Assembly: GCA_017456495.1 (NCBI GenBank)
Contig: JAFTJI010000146.1
Coordinates: 1 to 33,556, forward strand
Direction of reading: 5' to 3'
DNA from: Lentisphaeria bacterium
Lineage (GTDB): Bacteria > Verrucomicrobiota > Lentisphaeria > Victivallales > UBA1829
Length of the DNA stretch: 33,556 nt
Below, piece by piece: positions 1 through 25,763 of the stretch; within the stretch, counting starts at the first letter, position 1, and the number at the start of each line of letters is the position of its first letter. Under the pieces are notes generated by a model that was not told where the DNA came from, did not search any database, and worked only from the letters and a program-made list of their open reading frames with translations. Both the position numbers and the translations under genes were made by a program.

Positions 1-60
1 GATGAGCAAAAACATTTTTATTCGATGGTGTCAGGTCTTTCTGACTTGACAAAACACTAA
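1..60 (+). CDS. possible 3' end of an upstream gene (partial)
   Basis: Frame 1 is open from the window edge for 19 codons and ends in TAA at 58-60. The residues read like an ordinary protein tail (ends SGLSDLTKH), but the stretch is too short to assign a family. If real, the last codons contain the -35 box of the promoter for the next operon. It could equally be non-coding leader sequence. Confidence 0.3.
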   Translation, partial: DEQKHFYSMVSGLSDLTKH

Positions 61-74
61 ATAACAAGTATATT
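46..74 (+). promoter_or_regulatory. sigma70-type promoter of the glycan operon
   Basis: A perfect -35 box TTGACA (46-51) and a -10 box TATATT (69-74) are separated by 17 bases. Transcription would start near 81, giving a leader of about 84 bases before the TTG start at 165. A short inverted repeat, GTCAG/CTGAC (30-34 and 41-45), abuts the -35 box and could be a regulator site. Confidence 0.7.
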
Positions 75-86
75 AACAACGAAAGG

Positions 87-134
87 TTCGGGAACAATCA
101 TGGATACAAATTTTTACCCACAAAAATTCCCGAA
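87..134 (+). promoter_or_regulatory. leader stem-loop upstream of the glycan operon
   Basis: TTCGGGAA (87-94) and TTCCCGAA (127-134) form a perfect 8-bp stem around a 32-base loop, within the predicted 5' leader. No U-tract follows, so it is not a simple terminator. A 22-codon reading frame (ATG at 100, TGA at 166-168) starts in the loop and its stop overlaps the TTG start of the first gene. A role in coupling, mRNA stability or attenuation is inference. Confidence 0.4.
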
Positions 135-164
135 GGATCATTTAAAATTTAAGGAGATAAGAAC

Positions 165-1193
165 TTGAAACGTTTATTGTTTTCGGTTGGATTGCTGATC
201 CTTCCGTGTTTGTTCGGTCAGATGCGGGAGCTTTCCTTCTATGAAGTTCAGCCCCGCAAGGGTGAAATCGTCATTGACGGAAAATTGGATGAGGCAGCAT
301 GGAAAAATATTCCGGTTCATGGAAATTACTATGAATACTGGAAAAACAATCCCGGTCCCGGTGCATTGAAAACCACTTACCGTATGGTTTACGATGAAAA
401 AGGTCTTTACATGGCAGTCGTGAACTATGAAGATAATATTCCTGCACTTAAACGATCCATTACCGAATATGACAATGGGAATATCTGGATGGATGATTGC
501 GGTGAATTTTATTTTGACCCGGCGGCAGATGGAATCGGGTACACCAAGTTTACCATCAATGCCAACGGAGCTTTTGCTGATATGCGCCGTCAGGATACCG
601 CAGTTACTCTGAATGACTGGAACGGGATCGGAACGATGACTGCTGCATCTGTCGGCAAGGATTCCTGGACGATCGAAGCCTTTTTCCCGTGGGATGACCT
701 GAACGGTGTTCCGCAGATTGGAACCCTCTGGCAGTTCTGTCATGCCCGTTTCTCCTGGACAAATAAATTCCGCGGTATGACTTCTTCTCCCGGCGGAAAC
801 TACAACGCAACCGACAAGTTCGGCTATCTCTATTTTTCTGATGGAAAGACGAAACTTGATCCGGAAAAAATCGGACTTTTGCTTCAGACCAAAGCCGCAG
901 TTCCCTGGTGCATCCCCTGCGGAGATGTTCTCGTCAGCTGTACCGGATCTCTGTTGAAAATGGATTCTCTCGGAGAACTCCTGAAAGAAGAACAGGACAA
1001 ATACCGCCTTCTTGTTCTTGCAATCGAAACGATTGATCCCAAGATGTTTGCGAAAGATCTTGCCAGGATCCGCAAAGAAACTGCAGCGGCAAAAAAATCT
1101 GATCTTATGTCCCGTTACCGGACATATCAGGCTGCCAATAGCGCATTGTTCAATATCAAATGGACAATTCTTCTGAACAAATATTACAAATAA
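165..1193 (+). CDS. secreted CBM9-like carbohydrate-binding protein
   Basis: A 342-residue exported protein. A hydrophobic signal peptide covers about residues 1-18. Residues about 25-230 look like a family 9-type carbohydrate-binding (DOMON-like) beta-sandwich: the region opens with the hallmark IVIDGKLDEAAWKN, continues with a stretch like YDEKGLYMAVVNYED, and ends in a WTIEAFFPWDDL-type strand. Residues about 265-342 are charged and helical and may be a coiled coil. There is no catalytic module, so a glycan-binding or accessory role in the periplasm or at the surface is inferred. The start is TTG at 165, because an AAGGAG Shine-Dalgarno lies at 151-156 and the signal peptide begins there. 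It is the first gene of the five-gene operon and is followed after 25 bases by the GH42-like gene. Confidence 0.75.
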   Translation: MKRLLFSVGLLILPCLFGQMRELSFYEVQPRKGEIVIDGKLDEAAWKNIPVHGNYYEYWKNNPGPGALKTTYRMVYDEKGLYMAVVNYEDNIPALKRSITEYDNGNIWMDDCGEFYFDPAADGIGYTKFTINANGAFADMRRQDTAVTLNDWNGIGTMTAASVGKDSWTIEAFFPWDDLNGVPQIGTLWQFCHARFSWTNKFRGMTSSPGGNYNATDKFGYLYFSDGKTKLDPEKIGLLLQTKAAVPWCIPCGDVLVSCTGSLLKMDSLGELLKEEQDKYRLLVLAIETIDPKMFAKDLARIRKETAAAKKSDLMSRYRTYQAANSALFNIKWTILLNKYYK

Positions 1194-1218
1194 CATATAA
1201 AGAAAGAGAAGTGTGATC

Positions 1219-4200
1219 ATGAAAAAACTTTTGCTTTTATCTGCGCTCCTTGCAGGTTCTGTTGCATTTGCAAAACATGATGGCTGGTATGTCAATGATT
1301 TGACAGAAAATTACAAGACGGAACATTTGAGCTGGGATAAGACTACAGCACCGCTGAATGTGTTTTTCTATGTTCAGCCCACTGGTGCGCGAGATGTGAT
1401 CGAACTTGTGCAGCGTATGAACATCAAATATACTCCGTTTCTGACTCAGACGTACTATATATATGCTTCAGAAGGTGTTTATCGTGCAGCACTTTCCGGT
1501 ACAAGCCCTTATGAAAAGAATGAGGAACTGCGTGCGAAGCTCAGCGGTGATTTTGATGTGATCTATATCGGAAATGCTCCGTTTACAAAGGCACCGGCTG
1601 ATGCTCAGCTTCAGATGCTCCAGAAAGTTCAAAATGGGGCAGGGATGGTCATTTCTGCCACAAATCTTCCCTATAAAAAAGTGTTTGCCAACAAGCTTCC
1701 GCTTCCGGCATTCCTCAATGAAGTCGTACACTCTTACAACAAGAAAAATATCATTGCCTACCAGTTCGGCAAAGGCAGAATCCTTGTAATCAAGAATCAC
1801 TATGCAGGACCGGCAATGACCCAGAACTACCGCAGGGGCGACCACCGTGCAAGGGCAATTCAGGAAAATGAATATGTCTTCTACATGCGCGCTTTGCAGT
1901 GGGCAGCCGGAAAAGATGTATCTGTCGGAAAAATGGAAGACAAGGGTTCCTACCTTGCAGTAACTCCCGGCGTTCAGTACCGTATCCGCGATGAGTTCAA
2001 CAATGTTCTTGCAACCGGGGTTGCCAAAGACGGAAAAGTTCCAGTCCAGCAGTTTTCCAGCGGAAAATATTTCTGCGATATCATTGTAAAAGGCAAAGCA
2101 TGCGGAGTGTTTGCTTTTGAAAGAAAGTCCGCTTTGGGCGAGGGAGAGATCACGGTTTCTTCCGAATATCTCCGTGGAAAAGCACCGTTCAAAGGAACGT
2201 TCAAAATCACCGGAACAGTTCCAAGCACGATGGCAAAGCCGCTGACTTTGAACCTGACTCTTGTTGACCATCCCAACGGACGTGTCTGGGAGAAGAAATC
2301 TTTCAAGATGTTCCCCAACAGTGCAGTGGACTTTGAGTTCAAGAATTACCGTATGCCCAACGAAGCAGGTATTCTTTATGCAACTGTTACAGATGCCAAA
2401 GGAAATACCGTCCTGAAAGCGGATAAAGTTCTGTACTTCCCCTCAGACAAACTTCCGCTTTATTATCAAGCTACATTCGGTCAGGCAAACAGCATCAACA
2501 TGGCAAAGCAGCTTGTTGACAACATGGGATTCGGGACAGCTTTGGCTCACCTTACCAGAGCTTCCAGCCGTAATCTGGCAATGTTGAACTCCCAGCTGAT
2601 CCCGTACCTTGTCCGTGTCAACATGGGAATGAACCCCAATAAGAATGTGAAACTTCAGATCCTGAGCGGAGCCGAAAGCAAAGAAATCAAAAAATACAAT
2701 GACCAGAGTTTCTACAATCCCGTGATCAAAGAAATCTGGCGAAAACAGGTGGAAAGCCGTCTGGACGGACTGCCGGAACTTTCCCCGATCCTGTACAGTC
2801 TTGGTGATGAAAACGTTCTGAACCGTAATGCGGGATATGGTCCTTCCGACCTTCCTGCTTTCCGGAAATTTGTTGCGAAGAAGTATGGCACGATCGCAAA
2901 ACTCAATGCCAACTGGGGAACCTCCTACAAATCTTTTGACGAAGTCCCCCATCGTGATCTTTCCGTTTCCCTGAAAGAAAAACGGTTTGCGGAATGGAAC
3001 GACCATAATGAATATATGGAACAGATGTTTGCTGACATCCACCACTATACTGCCAAGCTGATCAAGGCAAAAGATCCTCATGCAAGAGTCGGTTTGGAAG
3101 GAACATTCGGCGGACATAATATTGAGCTGATGATGGAAGGTCTTGACTGGTGGGGACCCTATTCCAACATGCTGGAAGACCAGGTCCTGCGCAGTCTTTA
3201 TCCGGAAGTTCCCCGCTTTGTCTGGTCCGGATATCATAGCGAACGCAACATGAAAACACCGTTGATGAACCGCTATCTTCTGCTTGGTTCTGTGAACGGA
3301 AATGGATGGTATGCAGCAGGTTGTGACTTTAATCATGATATTCTTGCTGTTGACCAGTCTCCTTCTTTCTGCAAGAGCTTCAATGACAGTCTTCAAGAAC
3401 TCCGTTTCGGTATGGCTCAGACATTGATTGCCAACACCATGCTTTATTCAGGAATCGTTATTTTATGGAATCACGTTTCACGCCGTTATCCGAAAGTGGA
3501 TGAACGGTGTGTTTCTCCGGAATCCGGAATTGGACCTCTCATCCGTTTCTGCAATGCAACCGGATCCGGTTTTGAGTTCGTGACAGCCCGTAATGCAGCA
3601 AAACGGCTGCCCAAGATCAAAGTCCTCTTTGTTCTCGGAATCAACGCAATGAGCGATAAAGAAGCTGCGATGATCGTGGACTTTGTGAAGAAGGGCGGAA
3701 CCGTGATCGCAGACTTTGCACCTGCCCGTCTCAACGAAAATCTTGCGATCCGCAAGCAGAATCCTCTGTACGAACTGTTTGGAAATCAGGTTTTGAAACC
3801 CGGAAACAAATATGTTGTCAATGCATTGTCCATTCCCGGCTTCAAGGCATCCAAGGCTTTGGTAGATCCTGCCCGCAAGCCGATGGAAGTCCGGAAGGTC
3901 GGCAAAGGTAAAGCGATTCTTCTTAACTTCAACTTTGCAATCGTTGAAACTGCCGCAGATAAAACCACTCCGTTCGTCGGATTCATGAAGAATCTGCTGG
4001 TGAAGAACGGCGCATACATTCCTTACAGCCAGACAAATCAGGAACCTGTTTTCCGTGTCAGAAACGGAAAAGGTTTTGATCTTCTCGGCGTGTATAACAA
4101 CAAGAATAAAACAGCAACGACGATCAAATTTCCTGCACGCAAATATATTTATGCCGCCGGAAAAGGTTTCGTCGGTTATACTGACACTGTAAAAGTTGCA

Positions 4201-4524
4201 TTCTCTGAAGATGTTCCCCTGCATGTCTTTGCCGCATTTGACAAAAAGCAGGCAGCTCCTGCAGTCAGTGCTCCTGCAGCAGTGAAAACCGGTGAGAACA
4301 TTGTTCTTTCCTACAAGAATATTCCTGCCGGACGTACTGTCGTGATCCGCGTGATCGGTCCGGATGGAAAAGAACTTCTTGACCGGGGCGTTGTACTCAG
4401 CACCAATGATGGCAACTCCTACAGGTTCGGAGTTCCTTACAATGCTGTGAAGGGAACGTATAAATTCACCGTGAAGGATTACGAGACCGGACTTTCCGCG
4501 GTAAAGACTGTTATTGTGAAGTAA
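1219..4524 (+). CDS. secreted GH42-like glycoside hydrolase with GATase-like domains
   Basis: A protein of 1101 residues with a clear signal peptide (MKKLLLLSALLAGSVAFA). ATG at 1219 is preferred to the in-frame GTG at 1213 because the signal peptide starts there. Residues about 45-230 resemble a GATase-like domain and about 310-405 a beta-sandwich. Residues about 415-760 look like a GH42-type barrel: SLGDEN around E531 is a plausible acid/base, followed by the family-like segment FVAKKYGTIAKLNANWGTSY. A second GATase-like domain, similar to the beta-galactosidase trimerisation domain, covers about 798-860. An Ig-like domain closes the protein at about 1010-1101. The likely role is hydrolysis of a plant or host glycan outside the cytoplasm. 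The exact substrate cannot be read from sequence, and divergence from classical GH42 makes the family assignment tentative. Confidence 0.7.
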   Translation: MKKLLLLSALLAGSVAFAKHDGWYVNDLTENYKTEHLSWDKTTAPLNVFFYVQPTGARDVIELVQRMNIKYTPFLTQTYYIYASEGVYRAALSGTSPYEKNEELRAKLSGDFDVIYIGNAPFTKAPADAQLQMLQKVQNGAGMVISATNLPYKKVFANKLPLPAFLNEVVHSYNKKNIIAYQFGKGRILVIKNHYAGPAMTQNYRRGDHRARAIQENEYVFYMRALQWAAGKDVSVGKMEDKGSYLAVTPGVQYRIRDEFNNVLATGVAKDGKVPVQQFSSGKYFCDIIVKGKACGVFAFERKSALGEGEITVSSEYLRGKAPFKGTFKITGTVPSTMAKPLTLNLTLVDHPNGRVWEKKSFKMFPNSAVDFEFKNYRMPNEAGILYATVTDAKGNTVLKADKVLYFPSDKLPLYYQATFGQANSINMAKQLVDNMGFGTALAHLTRASSRNLAMLNSQLIPYLVRVNMGMNPNKNVKLQILSGAESKEIKKYNDQSFYNPVIKEIWRKQVESRLDGLPELSPILYSLGDENVLNRNAGYGPSDLPAFRKFVAKKYGTIAKLNANWGTSYKSFDEVPHRDLSVSLKEKRFAEWNDHNEYMEQMFADIHHYTAKLIKAKDPHARVGLEGTFGGHNIELMMEGLDWWGPYSNMLEDQVLRSLYPEVPRFVWSGYHSERNMKTPLMNRYLLLGSVNGNGWYAAGCDFNHDILAVDQSPSFCKSFNDSLQELRFGMAQTLIANTMLYSGIVILWNHVSRRYPKVDERCVSPESGIGPLIRFCNATGSGFEFVTARNAAKRLPKIKVLFVLGINAMSDKEAAMIVDFVKKGGTVIADFAPARLNENLAIRKQNPLYELFGNQVLKPGNKYVVNALSIPGFKASKALVDPARKPMEVRKVGKGKAILLNFNFAIVETAADKTTPFVGFMKNLLVKNGAYIPYSQTNQEPVFRVRNGKGFDLLGVYNNKNKTATTIKFPARKYIYAAGKGFVGYTDTVKVAFSEDVPLHVFAAFDKKQAAPAVSAPAAVKTGENIVLSYKNIPAGRTVVIRVIGPDGKELLDRGVVLSTNDGNSYRFGVPYNAVKGTYKFTVKDYETGLSAVKTVIVK

Positions 4525-4551
4525 TCAAATTTCAACTGAAAGGAAATAATC

Positions 4552-5634
4552 ATGAAACGTCTTATTGTACTTGGTGCATTGGCAATGGTTCTCGGGCTTT
4601 CTGCCCGTGAGCCCTCTATGAAATTGATCGACAAAACCTTTGATAGAAAGGGCGAAAAACTTCAGCATAAAGAGTGGGTCGTCAAGTTCCACCATGCTGA
4701 TTTGAACTTGAAAAATATCATTGACAAAGACGGTAAACTTGTCAAGAAAGCCTGGGGTGATTTCTTCCTTGGGCTGCGCCACGGAACGATCTACAACGGA
4801 TCCTGGGACATCTGGCACTTTGTCTCTGCCATGGACAAAAAATGGAAAGTTCTGCCGGAAAAAGAGCCCGCTTCAAAGGTTTCTTTTGTCCGTTTTGCAG
4901 ACAGCTCCTGTGTCAACATGGAATGGACAAACGGTTCCATCCGTGTTCTGCAGACCTCCGGTTCGCAGAAATGGGTTTATGTTAAAGTGACCATGCCTGC
5001 CGGAATCCACAAAGTGATGCTTTCAGTCCGTCCCGGCGGATCTCATCATGGAATCAAGGGCAGAGAACGTCATATCCGTTTCGGTTCCCTTGATATCGAA
5101 AGCAAGAACTTCAAAGTGAACACGATCCCGTTTGACGGCAAGACAACCGGGATGGCGTTCTATAACAAGAATTACAATGAAAAGAATGGTAACTTCCTTG
5201 TGTTTGAAGCCGAAAAGATCCAGACCATTCAGAACCATACGGAAAACCCTGTCAACGTTATTTTCTATCCGAAGAAAGGTGTGACTGAGCTGAACTTTGC
5301 ACTTGGTTACTTCCTGAATGAAGATGCCGAAGAAGTAATCCAGCGGTTCATGGTGGAACAGCTTCCGACGATCCGGAAAGGTCTGGATTCCATTCAGTGG
5401 GATAAAGCTCCGGATTTCTCTGAATTTACCAAAAATGCTGCTCAGGTGAAAAATCTGATTGCCGGTGTTCAGGGACCGGACAAAGCAAAATATGAAAAAG
5501 AATTTGCTGCCATCGTAAAGGATTATGAAGCGGCAAAGGCAAAAAATGATATCTCTGCATATACCGATGTTTTGGATCGCCTGCGTAAATTGCAGAAAAA
5601 GATCGGAAGCTCAACATTGGATTCATTAATGTAA
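4552..5634 (+). CDS. secreted protein of unknown function in the glycan operon
   Basis: A 360-residue protein with a signal peptide (MKRLIVLGALAMVLGLSA, then REP). I do not recognise a family. The body, about residues 25-280, is rich in aromatic beta-strands (for example GSWDIWHF, IRFGSLDIES, VNVIFYPKKG), as expected for a jelly-roll or other beta-sandwich that might bind carbohydrate. Residues about 285-360 are helical and charged and resemble in style the helical tail of the first gene of the operon. An AAAGGA Shine-Dalgarno at 4539-4544 supports ATG 4552. It lies 27 bases after the GH42-like gene and 12 bases before the GH39-like gene. Cotranscription suggests an accessory role in glycan capture or breakdown; this is inference from context only. 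Confidence 0.7.
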   Translation: MKRLIVLGALAMVLGLSAREPSMKLIDKTFDRKGEKLQHKEWVVKFHHADLNLKNIIDKDGKLVKKAWGDFFLGLRHGTIYNGSWDIWHFVSAMDKKWKVLPEKEPASKVSFVRFADSSCVNMEWTNGSIRVLQTSGSQKWVYVKVTMPAGIHKVMLSVRPGGSHHGIKGRERHIRFGSLDIESKNFKVNTIPFDGKTTGMAFYNKNYNEKNGNFLVFEAEKIQTIQNHTENPVNVIFYPKKGVTELNFALGYFLNEDAEEVIQRFMVEQLPTIRKGLDSIQWDKAPDFSEFTKNAAQVKNLIAGVQGPDKAKYEKEFAAIVKDYEAAKAKNDISAYTDVLDRLRKLQKKIGSSTLDSLM

Positions 5635-5646
5635 GTAAGGAAAAAA

Positions 5647-7017
5647 ATGGAAACGTTCGCATTCGACCGTTGCTGTGCAGAAGCAGATTTCGGCACTGTC
5701 TCCGGTAAATTCAATAAGGCTTTACATTCGACCAATACTGCGCCGAATCTTTCGAACCGGGGGATCCGGGATATCACGCAAATCTTCAAGAGCATGAATT
5801 TTGAGTATTCAAGAACTCACGATTGGGCGTTGTGGAACAGCGGTCAGCGTGTGGTTGATACTCACTTCGTATTTCCTCTGATGCACCTGGATCCGGGGGA
5901 TCCTGAAAATTACTATTTCGATCCCACGGACGAAATGATCCGGATCACTCAGGAAGCCGGAAGTAAAGTTTTCTACAGACTCGGAACCAGTATTGAACAT
6001 TCCGGATTGCGCCCCGAACAGAAGCATTTCAATTCCGTTCCTCCAAAAGATTACGGAAAATATGCAGAAGTTCTGGCTGGGATCATCCGGCATTACACGA
6101 AAGGCTGGGCGAACGGTTTCCATTATGACATGGAGTATTGGGAGATCTGGAAAGAGTCTGAGAACGATCCGACCTGCTGGAAAGGCTCTTATGAGGAATT
6201 TATCAAATTCTTTGTGATCGTCCTGAAACGTTTGAAGTCAGAGTTTCCGGAATTGAAGATCGGCGGCCCTGCCGCAACAGGATACCGGGAAGATTTGATC
6301 GGACCGCTTCTCGCAGCTTGCAAAGATGCCGGAGTTGCACCTGATTTCATCACCTGGCACAGCTATGAATGTATGCCGGATTCCCTGATCGGACAGCCTG
6401 CACGAATGAAAGAGTTCGTCAAGGCACAAGGTTTTCCGGATTGCGAACTCGGCGTGACAGAATGGCATTATCTTGTCAGCTGGGATGGTATTCAGCGGAA
6501 CATGAGCGAAGAGAATCGCCGTCTGGCTCTGGACAGTCAGGGCGGACTTTGCGGAATCGACTCTGCCGTATATAATCTTTCCGTTCTTTGCGGCTGGCAG
6601 GATACCGAACTGGATTTCGGTTTTTATTACGGAGCGAATCCCGTTGGCGACTGGGGGTATATGAACCATTTCGGCGGATTCAATAAAAATTACTTTTCCA
6701 TGTGTATGTTCGGTACGCTGCTCGGCACGTTTGAGAATAAAATCAAATCTCAGAAACTCGACAGCAATGTATATCTTCAGGGCGGTGTCTCTGATGACGG
6801 AAAAACCGGGATGCTGCTTGTTGCCGATTACCGCAGCGATGTAATGTCCCGCCAGGTGAAAGTTTCCGGTATGGATGGTGCGTTTGTCACTGCTCAGCTG
6901 CTGGATCACACACACAGTCTGACAGAAGTAAATGTATCGTTCAAAAATGGCGTTTTGACTCTCCCGAAGAATGCAGTCGGCTCAGCTGCTTTTCTTATAA
7001 AATTTGATAAACGGTAA
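5647..7017 (+). CDS. cytoplasmic GH39-like glycosidase (beta-xylosidase-type)
   Basis: A 456-residue protein without signal peptide, close to the usual length of GH39 enzymes. The N-terminal half fits a clan A (beta/alpha)8 barrel, with a stretch like FDPTDEMIRITQEAGSKVFY. The segment YWEIWKE places E170 as candidate acid/base (compare WNEP in GH39), and GVTEWHY places E272 as candidate nucleophile. The C-terminal part, about residues 380-456, is beta-rich, as in GH39 accessory sandwich domains. It probably cleaves oligosaccharides taken up after the secreted enzymes have acted. The substrate (xyloside, iduronide or other) is not readable. ATG 5647 follows a short AAGGA motif. The gene starts 12 bases after its upstream neighbour and ends 8 bases before the next gene, so translational coupling is likely. 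Confidence 0.7.
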   Translation: METFAFDRCCAEADFGTVSGKFNKALHSTNTAPNLSNRGIRDITQIFKSMNFEYSRTHDWALWNSGQRVVDTHFVFPLMHLDPGDPENYYFDPTDEMIRITQEAGSKVFYRLGTSIEHSGLRPEQKHFNSVPPKDYGKYAEVLAGIIRHYTKGWANGFHYDMEYWEIWKESENDPTCWKGSYEEFIKFFVIVLKRLKSEFPELKIGGPAATGYREDLIGPLLAACKDAGVAPDFITWHSYECMPDSLIGQPARMKEFVKAQGFPDCELGVTEWHYLVSWDGIQRNMSEENRRLALDSQGGLCGIDSAVYNLSVLCGWQDTELDFGFYYGANPVGDWGYMNHFGGFNKNYFSMCMFGTLLGTFENKIKSQKLDSNVYLQGGVSDDGKTGMLLVADYRSDVMSRQVKVSGMDGAFVTAQLLDHTHSLTEVNVSFKNGVLTLPKNAVGSAAFLIKFDKR

Positions 7018-7025
7018 GGTGAAAA

Positions 7026-10000
7026 ATGAGAAACCTCTTTCATGAATCTTTTGAAACGGTAACGGATGGTCTTCCTGGCGGCTGGTTTGTTGAAAACAAC
7101 TCAAACCTGAAAGCTGTTCCGGCAATCAGAAACGGAGAAAAGTGTATAGAACTTCTCTCTGCCGGAAACAAATATCTTCCGGTGATCCCGGACGTTTCCG
7201 ACTGTATTGTGAAGTGTACTCTGTCATTTGATTTTTCAATGACAAAAAATGATTTTGAAGGAGGTTTTGCCTATATCACATCATTCCGGTATGATACCGC
7301 AACCGGACGCGGACAGGCTGTAAGAATGCGGCGGAATCAGAAAAATGAAACTGTTGTTTATGAATATGGTACCGTCCGCCGGAATATTTTCACCAAAATC
7401 ACTGCTCAGGAATTTCCTGTTGCAGATGCAGAACTTGATAAGCCTTTTGAGATTCAAATGACGATCAGAGGTGAGTCTCTTACTGTTGATTCTTTCGGTC
7501 AGAGCGTTTCTTTTGAGGTCGCTCCCGGAAATGGCAAAATTGCAATCGCCCGGGAACATTTCTTTGATGTCCTGAAAATTCTCGCCTTTGATATTGAAAC
7601 GGATGAAGAGCTGATTGCCGGAAAGAAAACCGCTTTTACGATCCCGCTTTCAGAAGAACCGACCTATTATCCGTTGTTTTGTGACATTGAACTGGAAGAT
7701 TACGGAAACTGCATGGAAGCTTCTCTTTCTCTTCATGGCGGTGTGTTTGAAACACCTATCGGGGAGGGGACTTATCATGGCAGACGGATGGATCTTTTGA
7801 CCAATCCCTACTTGAAAGTGATCACCCCGGAAAGTTTCACCAAACACATTGTTTACAATGACCGCATCGTCATGATCCCGGATGGGCTTTCCGATGAATT
7901 TTTCTACAAAGTTCTGGCACAGAAAGTTGATTGGCCCTTCAAGCGGAATGTCCGTTTCCTGAAACCGGATACAGCGTTCGATCTTGCTTTCGGATTCGAT
8001 AATTTTGTACAGGTTCAAAATCGGGATTTTTCAGAATCACCTTCTGAGACAGTGTTTGATCTTGACGGAAATGTTCTTTATTCCGGACTTGGAATTACCG
8101 AAAAGAGTAAGATGGAGCTGCTTTCCAGAAGTGACAAAGAAATGCTGAACCGTCTTCCGAAGTCTGATCCCAGGTATGATAAGGCTGTACAGTTTGTCAA
8201 GGATAATCACTTTTTCTTTGAAAATGAGACCCCGGAATTCAAGGTGCGCCTGACCGGTAAAAATCTGCCGGAAAGTTTCCGGATCGTGCTGCAAAACGCT
8301 TTTTTGGAACCTGTCCGTGAACTCGAATATACAATGGAACGGACAACTGTCAAATATGGAGTTTCAGAATATTCTCAGAATCTTTTTACTGTTGAAGATC
8401 TGTCCGGTATTGAATGCGGAGTCTGGCAAATCCAGATTGACAGCACTGACGGCAGTGTGGAGGAGATGTCCAAACTCTGGGCGTTTGAAGTGATGTCCCG
8501 GGAAGAGGGCGCATTGCCGCCGCCGCTGCTTTCCGGCATCCCGTATCTTTATGATTCCCGTACAGAAACACGCGGTTTGATTACAGATGCCTTTGATCCG
8601 TGGAAAGGAAAAAGTGCCAATGCTCCGCATTACATTTCCTGTGCTAACTTCCTGCCGCCGGCTGCGAAAAAATATCAGGTGTTTTCCACCGTCAAAGCAT
8701 ACGGAAGAGAAAACTTCCTCTGGCTGGAACCCCGCTGTACCAATACGCATAAGATCGAGGATAACCTTGACAGTATCGCACAGACTGACTATGTGAATAT
8801 AGCGGAAGAGATCGTTCAGAAACCTTTGACCTGGCGTTATTCCTACCGCGGATTTGTCTTGAAGACGCTTATTGAGTTTATCAAGATGAAAAAAGATCCG
8901 AATTTCCCTCTGGAAGAGATGGAAAAATGGCTTGCTGAAGATGTCAAGAGCCAGCTTGATGAAAAGACCATGATTTATCTGGTTGATACTTACTGGGAAG
9001 AGTGGCTTGACTTTGCCAACAAGGCTTGTCATGAAAATAAAAAATCTATTCTGGAAGAACTGCGCAAGACAAATCCGAAACTCAAGTTTTCTCAGTACGG
9101 TCCGGGAAATATCTATGCAGCGAACTTCAAAGGTCCGGAATTTGCCCGTTATATCCAGAACGAAAATGCAACAAATGATGTCAACGGATTCTGGCAGTTT
9201 GAAGATTATCCCTTTGCCTGCCGTTATGATCTCAGCAGCGGAAGTTATTATCTGACATCCTGTCTGCTGCAGTTTCCCGGCGGACGTTTCTATCCGGAAA
9301 TTTATGTGGATGGCGGCGTTGCCGGTTGTCCGGACGGAGCTGTTTATTATGCGCATCCGCCCTTCGGTCAGCGTCCGGTTTCTTATCCGCAGCGCATGAC
9401 CAAGAATGTTTATGAGTTCTGTTACGGTTCCGCTCATTATGCGGATGATGGATTCCATTTCTGGGAAAAATGCGGATTCCAGGCATGCCGTTTCTTTCTG
9501 AAATGGTATGAAACGCTGCTGAGAGCATGGCGTGTGGTAAGAGATTACCGTCCGGTCAAACCTGTCTGCAAGATGGCGTTCGTTTCCTCCAAAGCATCTC
9601 TGCGAGCCGCCCGGGAAACTCAGTTCCATATCAATTATCCCATGTACCGGATCGTTGATGTCCGCAATACAGCGTCTGAAGATGTTCCTTACATTGCCAA
9701 GAGCTGCCGTATGCAGGGACTGAGTGCTGGTTTCCAGATTTTTGAAGAAAATATTCTGAAGCTGACCTCTGATGATGTTTCCATTGTTGTTCTGCCTCCG
9801 TTGAAAGGGATGGCTGAAGCGACCTTAAAACATCTGCGGAAACTCCATGCGGAAGGTGTTTCCCTGATCGGTTGTGAAGATGTGACCGGCATGGAAGATA
9901 TTTTCGGCGTGAAAGATTCCGGCTGCAGAAAAAATGTAACCTGGGTTTCCGGAACGGAAAACTTCCTGAACGGACAGAAAGAGTACTGCGATGATGAACG

Positions 10001-10463
10001 TTGTACAGGTCGTTGGGCGGCAGATGGTGCAGAGGTTCTGCTTTCTGCTGAAATTCCTGTATTAACTATCAAGCGGAACGGTGCTGCCAGCGCAGTATTC
10101 TTCAATGTCCCGCCGCATCTGGTGAAAGAAGATCAGCTTCATGACCGCTACGCATCTTCCAAAGATGCAATCAGTGATTTCATGCAGCGCGCAGTTGCGG
10201 AAGTTGTCACTATGATTTCCAAACCGTTGGTCCGGATCCATGGCGACGGACGTATTCTTGCCAACTACACAGAAAACGGTGCTGTCATTGTTCCGGTCTA
10301 TAATCCGTCTGATAAGAATACTCTGACTGCAATTCTTGAGATCGACAAATCTCTGTGCTGCGGAAAGAGCGTAACCGGTGACGTGCCTGTTACCTGTCTG
10401 TCGGAAGGAAAATACCGGCTCCGTCTGGAACCTGATGCCAGTGCATATCTGATTATCCGCTGA
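7026..10463 (+). CDS. very large cytoplasmic protein, putative glycoside hydrolase of unassigned family
   Basis: An 1145-residue protein with no signal peptide. Residues about 1-190 (FHESFETVTDGLPGGWFVEN at the start) look like a concanavalin- or laminin-like beta-sandwich. Residues about 200-520 contain further beta-rich segments. Residues about 525-835 look like a barrel with conserved-looking acidic and aromatic patches (DTYWEEWLDFANKA; NGFWQFEDYPF). Residues about 870-1010 resemble a GATase-like domain as in GH42 enzymes, and a small beta-sandwich ends the protein. The overall order parallels the secreted GH42-like protein of the same operon. I cannot name catalytic residues with confidence. 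The Shine-Dalgarno AAGGTGA (7015-7021) overlaps the stop codon of the GH39-like gene, so the two are tightly coupled. It is the last gene of the operon, ending 24 bases before the terminator hairpin. Confidence 0.6.
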   Translation: MRNLFHESFETVTDGLPGGWFVENNSNLKAVPAIRNGEKCIELLSAGNKYLPVIPDVSDCIVKCTLSFDFSMTKNDFEGGFAYITSFRYDTATGRGQAVRMRRNQKNETVVYEYGTVRRNIFTKITAQEFPVADAELDKPFEIQMTIRGESLTVDSFGQSVSFEVAPGNGKIAIAREHFFDVLKILAFDIETDEELIAGKKTAFTIPLSEEPTYYPLFCDIELEDYGNCMEASLSLHGGVFETPIGEGTYHGRRMDLLTNPYLKVITPESFTKHIVYNDRIVMIPDGLSDEFFYKVLAQKVDWPFKRNVRFLKPDTAFDLAFGFDNFVQVQNRDFSESPSETVFDLDGNVLYSGLGITEKSKMELLSRSDKEMLNRLPKSDPRYDKAVQFVKDNHFFFENETPEFKVRLTGKNLPESFRIVLQNAFLEPVRELEYTMERTTVKYGVSEYSQNLFTVEDLSGIECGVWQIQIDSTDGSVEEMSKLWAFEVMSREEGALPPPLLSGIPYLYDSRTETRGLITDAFDPWKGKSANAPHYISCANFLPPAAKKYQVFSTVKAYGRENFLWLEPRCTNTHKIEDNLDSIAQTDYVNIAEEIVQKPLTWRYSYRGFVLKTLIEFIKMKKDPNFPLEEMEKWLAEDVKSQLDEKTMIYLVDTYWEEWLDFANKACHENKKSILEELRKTNPKLKFSQYGPGNIYAANFKGPEFARYIQNENATNDVNGFWQFEDYPFACRYDLSSGSYYLTSCLLQFPGGRFYPEIYVDGGVAGCPDGAVYYAHPPFGQRPVSYPQRMTKNVYEFCYGSAHYADDGFHFWEKCGFQACRFFLKWYETLLRAWRVVRDYRPVKPVCKMAFVSSKASLRAARETQFHINYPMYRIVDVRNTASEDVPYIAKSCRMQGLSAGFQIFEENILKLTSDDVSIVVLPPLKGMAEATLKHLRKLHAEGVSLIGCEDVTGMEDIFGVKDSGCRKNVTWVSGTENFLNGQKEYCDDERCTGRWAADGAEVLLSAEIPVLTIKRNGAASAVFFNVPPHLVKEDQLHDRYASSKDAISDFMQRAVAEVVTMISKPLVRIHGDGRILANYTENGAVIVPVYNPSDKNTLTAILEIDKSLCCGKSVTGDVPVTCLSEGKYRLRLEPDASAYLIIR

Positions 10464-10486
10464 TAAAAAAACAGTTTTGTTTCCGG

Positions 10487-10523
10487 GCTGCTGCAGAATT
10501 TATATTTTGCAGCAGCTTTTTTT
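10487..10523 (+). terminator. factor-independent terminator of the glycan operon
   Basis: GCTGCTGCA (10487-10495) pairs with TGCAGCAGC (10508-10516). The stem can extend inward by four more pairs, one of them G-U. It is followed by seven T (10517-10523). It lies 24 bases after the last stop codon. Confidence 0.9.
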
Positions 10524-24751: not shown

Positions 24752-24779
24752 AAAAAGATGGAGCAGGGGTGGCTGCTCC
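24752..24779 (-). terminator. factor-independent terminator of the alpha/beta hydrolase gene
   Basis: On the minus strand, GGAGCAG and CTGCTCC (arms at 24773-24779 and 24760-24766) enclose a 6-base loop. A short U-rich stretch follows (A run at 24752-24756 on the plus strand). It lies just downstream of the hydrolase stop. Confidence 0.65.
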
Positions 24780-24790
24780 GGGTATGCGGC

Positions 24791-24806
24791 AATCTGAAAT
24801 CAGATT
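24791..24806. repeat. short palindrome over the hydrolase stop codon
   Basis: AATCTGA-AA-TCAGATT is a perfect 7+7 bp inverted repeat with a 2-base centre. It covers the last codons and stop of the minus-strand hydrolase. It may be a protein site, or add to the 3'-end structure formed with the adjacent terminator hairpin. Confidence 0.5.
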
Positions 24807-25657
24807 TCAAAATCGGGATAATTCCGGAGAATGAAACCTGTCAGCGGGGTAGGATCATCCATGCCGTGGGGATGATGTCCGTAAAGATTGCGGTTGAGGA
24901 TCTCAATATCGCCGCCGGCATCTTTGATCAATTTTTCCATGATGTCGATATTTGTTTCCGGCAGAACGGACTGATCCTGTCCGCTGCGGATGACCAGCGT
25001 GGGGATCTTTGCCTTTGCAATGGGAAGATAGTTGTTCAGCGGGTTTTTCGGATGCTTTCTCAACCCCTCAACATCTGCGACACCGTAAGCGGCAAGATGT
25101 TTTTTGTATTCTGTCTGCATGAACGGGATCAGAGTCGGGTTTGTGTTTGTTTCGTCGCGGTCTCCGGCAAAGGAAAGCGAACAGACCGGGGCATCAAGAT
25201 ACATTGCTCCGACAGTTTCGGGGTGTTCTGCTGCCCATCTCCAGGAGAAGAGACCGCCGTAGCTCATGCCGATCAATGCGGCTTTCTTGTGGAAGTGCAT
25301 CTTCTGGAGCATGTCATAAAACTTTTCCAGAATGCGGACGCCTTCATCATTCATATAAGTTTCAAACACGTCGATATGAACATGATGGAATCCGCGATCC
25401 AGCAGCTGCAGGGCAGGGGTTCTGGGAACAAAAGCTTCTGCCCATTGCAGACACCAGCTCCAGGGCAATCCCTGTGCCGGGTGCGGCGGTTCCACAATAA
25501 ACCCTTTGTGACCTTCCAGTTCAAAGTTGTGGCGGATATATCCGTGCCAGATCACGGTTTCCCCTTCGGGATAGGCAATCTGTTTTTTCGATGTGAAAGC
25601 ATATCTTTCATTTCCGGCAGCAGCCAGAGATTCCTTGCTCATTCCTTTGTCAGACAT
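24800..25657 (-). CDS. alpha/beta hydrolase
   Basis: A 285-residue cytoplasmic protein with an alpha/beta hydrolase fold. The nucleophile elbow is GMSYGG (S132), the acid is probably D228 (SGQDQSV) and the base is H261 or H264 (GHHPHGMDD). The oxyanion region precedes it (residues about 60-100). A cap-like helical segment at about 165-215 (TLIPFMQTEYKKHLAAYGVADVE) would shape the substrate pocket. It could be an esterase, peptidase or lactonase; substrate cannot be deduced. It is transcribed divergently from the metallophosphoesterase with an AAAGGAG Shine-Dalgarno. Its own promoter and terminator are visible, so it is probably monocistronic. Confidence 0.85.
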   Translation of the reverse strand: MSDKGMSKESLAAAGNERYAFTSKKQIAYPEGETVIWHGYIRHNFELEGHKGFIVEPPHPAQGLPWSWCLQWAEAFVPRTPALQLLDRGFHHVHIDVFETYMNDEGVRILEKFYDMLQKMHFHKKAALIGMSYGGLFSWRWAAEHPETVGAMYLDAPVCSLSFAGDRDETNTNPTLIPFMQTEYKKHLAAYGVADVEGLRKHPKNPLNNYLPIAKAKIPTLVIRSGQDQSVLPETNIDIMEKLIKDAGGDIEILNRNLYGHHPHGMDDPTPLTGFILRNYPDFEI

Positions 25658-25695
25658 GATAAAAACTCCTTTGTTGTATTAAAAGTATTCATTGT

Positions 25696-25723
25696 AATAT
25701 ACCAGTATTATTGTGCTTTTCAA
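25696..25723 (-). promoter_or_regulatory. promoter of the alpha/beta hydrolase gene
   Basis: On the minus strand, TTGAAA (25723-25718) is followed after 16 bases by TATATT (25701-25696), with the extended -10 TGG. Confidence 0.7.
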
Positions 25724-25734
25724 GCTGAATCTGT

Positions 25735-25763
25735 TTGAAAAAAACAGTTCTTAATGATATAGT
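25735..25763 (+). promoter_or_regulatory. promoter of the metallophosphoesterase gene
   Basis: TTGAAA (25735-25740) and TATAGT (25758-25763) are 17 bases apart, with the extended -10 TGA. The -35 box lies only 11 bases from the -35 box of the divergent hydrolase promoter, so the two may be regulated together. Confidence 0.7.

What the first reader, a model, noticed from the sequence alone, without database searches (positions are those of the whole stretch)
46..10523. Self-contained five-gene glycan-degradation operon with unclassified members
One promoter, tight spacing and one terminator hold three exported proteins (CBM9-like, GH42-like with two GATase-like domains, unknown beta-rich) and two cytoplasmic ones (GH39-like and an 1145-residue protein). 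There is no SusC/D, transporter, sulfatase or regulator inside. Secreted and intracellular steps of one pathway appear to be packaged together, with the substrate not recognisable from known operons.
Basis: partly seen in the sequence, partly recalled or inferred. Interest (0 to 1): 0.65.

Follow-up and report, generated by a model that had tools for sequence, protein, structure and literature searches.

The report
Conserved three-gene glycan module, two-gene extension
A gut Lentisphaeria bacterium carries an apparent operon of five sugar-polymer-degrading genes; three of them form a conserved, partly mobile exported set also found in Akkermansia and Kiritimatiellae, whose central enzyme resembles a beta-galactosidase family but seems to lack that family's catalytic nucleophile.

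Summary
The operon is real: five co-directional genes (165-10463), gaps of 8-27 bp, closed by a terminator facing a convergent efflux operon. It is not one five-gene unit. P1-P2-P3 (exported: CBM9-like, GH42-like, unclassified) is a conserved core: three copies in this genome, relatives in other Lentisphaeria, Akkermansia and Kiritimatiellae. Of 27 P2 loci, 22 have P3 directly downstream and 17 have P1 upstream. P4 (GH39) and P5 (unclassified) follow P3 only in this genus; P4-P5 adjacency recurs once elsewhere, reversed.

P3 matches no family; its AlphaFold model is a beta-sandwich, loosely galactose-mutarotase-like, plus a helical bundle. P5 matches no family; its model is a CBM66-like domain on a GH35/42-like body. 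P4 keeps both GH39 catalytic glutamates. P2 keeps the GH42 acid/base (E533) in all 25 orthologues, but none has an acid at the expected beta-7 nucleophile site; an invariant glutamate (E629) sits on beta-5.

Best reading: exported binding and cleavage by P1-P3, cytoplasmic trimming by P4-P5. Substrate and transporter are unknown; no activity is shown.

The parts
46..74 (+). promoter-like site, 11 of 12 matches
   Evidence: not enriched over shuffles, so only suggestive
165..1193 (+). P1: exported CBM9-like binding protein (342 aa, TTG start) with a charged, probably helical C-terminal region
   Evidence: PF06452 E 1.7e-8; orthologue L104 also reads from TTG; signal-like N-terminus
1213..4524 (+). 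P2: exported GH42-like protein (start 1213 GTG or 1219 ATG); invariant E533 on beta-4 and E629 on beta-5, no conserved acid on beta-7
   Evidence: PF02449 E 7.8e-7; profile to true GH42 E 2e-20; invariants over 25 orthologues; beta-7 comparison
4552..5634 (+). P3: exported protein of no known family; predicted beta-sandwich (about 20-255) plus C-terminal four-helix region (259-359)
   Evidence: no family in Pfam/NCBIfam; AlphaFold pLDDT 86, pTM 0.84; Foldseek
5647..7017 (+). P4: cytoplasmic GH39; acid/base E170, nucleophile E272
   Evidence: PF01229 E 1.3e-12; PDB 5z3k E 2e-23; residue conservation
7026..10463 (+). P5: 1145-aa cytoplasmic protein of no known family; predicted CBM66-like domain, beta domains, GH35/42-like barrel, Rossmann and C-terminal beta domain; invariant E726, D727, E758, D770
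   Evidence: no family; conservation over 21 members; AlphaFold pLDDT 88, pTM 0.84; Foldseek
10485..10518 (+). intrinsic terminator-like hairpin, 15 pairs, followed by a T-run

Best explanation
The locus is a glycan-degradation operon built from two modules. In the exported module, P1 (CBM9-like) and P3 (mutarotase-like sandwich with a helical tail) would hold or present a glycan, and P2, a large divergent GH42-like barrel protein, would cut it. In this genus a cytoplasmic pair was added: P4 (GH39) and P5 (GH35/42-like with a CBM66-like domain) would trim the imported oligosaccharides. Shown: gene order, conservation, family membership of P1, P2 and P4, export signals by sequence, predicted folds of P3 and P5. 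Inferred: co-transcription, catalysis by P2 and P5, the binding roles, and the division of labour across the membrane. Unknown: substrate and transporter.
For: Tight co-directional spacing and a shared terminator. P1-P2-P3 recurs in order: 22 of 27 P2 loci have P3 directly 3' and 17 have P1 5', directly or with one prepilin gene between; three copies in the own genome. P4-P5 adjacency recurs in G225 (L160) and, reversed and overlapping, in G166 of another family (L170). P3 and P5 families co-occur in 9 of 198 class genomes against 2.6 expected (hypergeometric 1.4e-4, not corrected for phylogeny). P4 catalytic glutamates intact. P5 model matches GH35 IaSGT over 752 alignment columns (E 1.8e-11) and CBM66 (TM 0.75). 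Neighbours of the core elsewhere include a GH78-type rhamnosidase domain directly after P2 (L123).
Against: No activity or expression data. P2 lacks the GH42 nucleophile at the expected place, so it may not be an ordinary hydrolase. P5 has no conserved acid on its presumed beta-4. P4-P5 are absent from most loci of the core, so a single five-step pathway is not general. Upstream genes are cut off by the contig end.
Confidence: 0.62

Rival explanations
1. P2 is no longer a hydrolase: P1-P2-P3 form an exported glycan-binding or surface complex in which the barrel only binds, and only P4 and P5 catalyse.
For: No acidic residue at the beta-7 nucleophile position in any of 25 orthologues, whereas true GH42 proteins of the phylum keep MES there and GH167-like relatives keep a glutamate. 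P1 and P3 look like binding proteins. Prepilin-type genes sit beside the core.
Against: D532, E533, D597, H598, E603, D608, E629 and E638 are strictly invariant, which is unusual for a dead barrel. The core also occurs where no P4-P5 follow.
Confidence: 0.22
2. Two adjacent but independent operons or pathways: P4-P5 simply inserted behind the core.
For: P4-P5 follow P3 only in one genus. In G225 a stretch of about 270 bp separates P3 from P4, inferred from an 85-bp contig-end overlap.
Against: In the window and in L103 the P3-P4 gap is 12-16 bp, and in the window no terminator-like site lies between. P3 and P5 families co-occur beyond expectation.
Confidence: 0.25
3. Ordinary galactan or carrageenan-type locus with a known substrate, P2 acting like GH167 or GH42.
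For: P2's best solved relatives by profile are a carrageenan-active GH167 (6ptm, E 3.6e-10), a GH35 glucosyltransferase and GH167 9whd (PMC6923384).
Against: Matches are short and local, the catalytic nucleophile is missing, and no sulfatase or anhydrogalactose gene is present.
Confidence: 0.1

Closest known systems
GH42 beta-galactosidases (PF02449)
   Same: P2 barrel and following Rossmann domain align over the whole profile; acid/base glutamate on beta-4 kept
   Different: NE becomes DE; no beta-7 nucleophile; extra N-terminal domain; about 1100 aa; exported
GH167 exo-carrageenases (BovGH167, PDB 6ptm; PMC6923384)
   Same: best profile match of P2 in the PDB; large GH42-like architecture; gut and marine glycan loci
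   Different: GH167 keeps both glutamates (E295, E472); P2 does not; no sulfatases around
GH35 IaSGT of Ignavibacterium album (PDB 7vkz; PMC8861115)
   Same: best structural match of the P5 model (E 1.8e-11); cytoplasmic; barrel, Rossmann and Ig-like domains
   Different: no sequence match; TM only 0.33 by query and 0.51 by target; P5 has an added CBM66-like domain and no conserved beta-4 acid
GH39 (PDB 5z3k)
   Same: P4 sequence and both catalytic glutamates
   Different: substrate not assignable; K169 where close homologues have Asn
Bacteroidota polysaccharide utilisation loci (from general knowledge)
   Same: co-directional binding protein and glycosidases of one presumed pathway
   Different: no SusC/SusD pair; GntR and prepilin-type neighbours instead

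Membership tests
GH42 (P2) | sequence match to the family barrel | tested here: met
   PF02449 29.2 bits against cut-off 21; hhalign E 2e-20
GH42 (P2) | acid/base Glu at end of beta-4 | tested here: met
   E533 invariant in 25 of 25
GH42 (P2) | nucleophile Glu at end of beta-7 | tested here: not met
   no D/E at the aligned position in any orthologue; GH42 references read MES. Rests on alignment; P2 structure was not predicted
GH39 (P4) | family profile match with acid/base and nucleophile glutamates | tested here: met
   (E170, E272)
CBM9 (P1) | family profile match above cut-off | tested here: met
   PF06452 35 bits against 23.4
GH35/GH42 superfamily (P5) | barrel plus Rossmann architecture | tested here: inconclusive
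   Foldseek E 1.8e-11 but TM 0.33/0.51; no sequence match
GH35/GH42 superfamily (P5) | catalytic Glu pair on beta-4 and beta-7 | tested here: inconclusive
   E758 invariant on presumed beta-7, no conserved acid on presumed beta-4; strand numbering is inferred
galactose mutarotase-like fold (P3) | supersandwich fold | tested here: inconclusive
   many such folds among the hits but TM about 0.3
Bacteroidota-type PUL | adjacent SusC/SusD pair | tested here: not met
   no such gene among the five; upstream unknown because the contig ends

The most novel reading that the evidence does not exclude
P2 founds a glycoside-hydrolase family in a GH42-type barrel with a rearranged catalytic site (beta-4 E533 with beta-5 E629, no beta-7 nucleophile), working with two dedicated exported partners, P1 and P3, as a transferable gut glycan module; P5 founds a second new family.
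Probability: 0.33. Interest if true: 0.7.

Novelty: new variant of a known kind. Interest (0 to 1): 0.5.

Why it matters
Lentisphaeria and related gut bacteria hold large numbers of GH42-like proteins (over twenty in several genomes), and no study of this group was found in the open library searched here. This locus gives a short, conserved gene set, present also in sequenced Akkermansia muciniphila strains, on which a new enzyme family and two family-less partner proteins can be tested directly. If the catalytic site is rearranged as the alignment suggests, it would be an instructive exception within clan GH-A.

Tried and rejected
1) P5 by sequence: Pfam, NCBIfam and a PDB profile search gave nothing usable, so it was modelled. 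2) P3 as a mutarotase: fold hits are weak (TM about 0.3) and no catalytic-type residue is invariant (only M1, W85, P161, A250, F266, W283), so a binding role is preferred. 3) P1 and P3 C-terminal helical regions as one shared domain: profile comparison not convincing (21 columns, probability 18%). 4) P2 N-terminal domain as a duplicate of its second Rossmann domain: weak. 5) Substrate from neighbours of the core: mixed (GH78-type domain, GNAT, Gfo/Idh, beta-helix), no single answer. 6) Literature searches found no study of this locus in the open library. 8) The NCBIfam alpha-1,4-L-rhamnosidase hit of P4 (E 3e-4, 19.7 bits against cut-off 850) was not used to name a substrate.

Full report
What is there. 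The window is one whole contig (C133) of a 3.43-Mb, 233-contig genome. Its nearest relatives are Lentisphaeria MAGs: SIG79 carries a 92%-identical P2 and sheep-colon RGIG5373 a 74% one. Five plus-strand genes run from 165 to 10463 with gaps of 25, 27, 12 and 8 bp, ending in a strong terminator-like hairpin at 10485-10518; a convergent AcrB/HlyD operon with a MarR-type gene lies beyond. The promoter-like site at 46-74 is well placed but such sites are not enriched in the region. P1-P3 have signal-like N-termini; P4 and P5 do not.

Families. P1 is CBM9-like, P2 GH42-like, P4 GH39; P3 and P5 match no family in Pfam or NCBIfam above weak noise. Nor do their families when 25 and 21 members are scanned against Pfam, apart from one stray weak hit each. 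P4 keeps both GH39 catalytic glutamates, E170 and E272, invariant in the first 20 sequences aligned; its best solved relative is 5z3k.

The core is three genes. P2 and P3 searches across the phylum returned adjacent pairs in Victivallales and Akkermansia and three copies in the own genome. A scan of 84,980 species genomes with a P2 alignment gave 27 loci in Lentisphaeria, Akkermansia and Kiritimatiellae. Of these, 22 have P3 immediately downstream and 17 have P1 upstream, sometimes with a prepilin-type gene between; two loci are cut at the 5' side. Some loci are near-duplicates, so these counts are not independent. Within Akkermansia, 9 of 76 species genomes carry P2. In six such loci P1 is intact in one, frameshifted in one and reduced to a C-terminal remnant in four. 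The P2 tree places Akkermansia inside a gut Lentisphaeria group, sister to a copy from G037 (100/100), and Kiritimatiellae inside another, which suggests horizontal transfer.

The added pair. P4 and P5 follow P3 in the window and in L103. In G225 P4-P5 stand together at the start of one contig, and P1-P2-P3 at the end of another; the two contig ends share an exact 85-bp overlap, which fits one locus but could be a repeat. In G166, of another family, a P5 and a GH39 lie together in reverse order and overlap by 29 bp. Elsewhere both families stand alone. P5 occurs in 30 and P3 in 17 of 198 class genomes, together in 9 (hypergeometric 1.4e-4, uncorrected for kinship).

P2's catalytic site. Against true GH42 proteins of the phylum the P2 profile aligns end to end (E 2e-20). 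The beta-4 acid/base glutamate is E533, invariant in 25 orthologues, in a DE rather than NE motif. GH42 references read FLLMES or FLIMES on beta-7 and GH167-like relatives keep a glutamate there. P2 orthologues read WSG, WIG, WYG, WHG or WWG, with no acid. E629 on beta-5 is invariant. In characterised GH167 enzymes the two glutamates overlay the GH42 pair and nucleophile mutants are inactive (PMC6923384).

P3 and P5 models. P3: pLDDT 86, pTM 0.84, a beta-sandwich followed by four helices; Foldseek's list is dominated by galactose-mutarotase-like folds but at TM about 0.3, so only a loose class can be named. P5: pLDDT 88, pTM 0.84; best match GH35 IaSGT (E 1.8e-11, TM 0.33 by query and 0.51 by target) and, for the N-terminal domain, CBM66 (TM about 0.75). 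Strictly invariant acids include E726 and D727 and E758 on or next to consecutive barrel strands, and D770 beside a low-confidence loop. The best match of P5 is itself an enzyme whose activity (beta-1,2-glucosyl transfer) departs from the rest of its family (PMC8861115), so substrate cannot be read from the fold.

Interpretation. The simplest reading is an exported binding-and-cleavage set extended by a cytoplasmic finishing pair. Export signals, family membership, order and conservation are shown by sequence; catalysis by P2 and P5, binding by P1 and P3, co-transcription and the substrate are inferred or unknown.

Noticed in passing
window 5647-7017, residue 169 of P4: Lys precedes the acid/base glutamate where the two close homologues (L103, L160) and most others have Asn.
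   Followed up: partly
L083, L116, L117, L127, L129: P1 is decaying in Akkermansia: C-terminal remnants or a frameshift upstream of intact P2-P3.
   Followed up: yes
L110, L112, L087, L122, L123: Prepilin-type genes with an N-terminal methylation motif sit between P1 and P2 or directly before P2.
   Followed up: partly
L123:11355-12992: A GH78-type alpha-L-rhamnosidase domain protein directly follows P2; L122 has a similar-length gene there. In L106 and L107 a gene follows P3, a GNAT-type acyltransferase in L106.
   Followed up: partly
G000:C79, L111, L113: P3 copies of one paralogous lineage end before the helical C-terminal region.
   Followed up: no
L163 (G220:C70): Two P5 genes in tandem.
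   Followed up: no
L130, L131, L137: P5 relatives in another genus begin with signal-peptide-like segments, unlike the window's P5.
   Followed up: no
L104 tail and L160 head: An exact 85-bp overlap joins two contigs of G225 between P3 and P4; nearby a GAGGAGGGGAAAAA...TTTTTCCCCTCCTC inverted repeat. A related pattern is absent from the window.
   Followed up: partly
window 24758-25738: 326-aa protein with no Pfam match.
   Followed up: no
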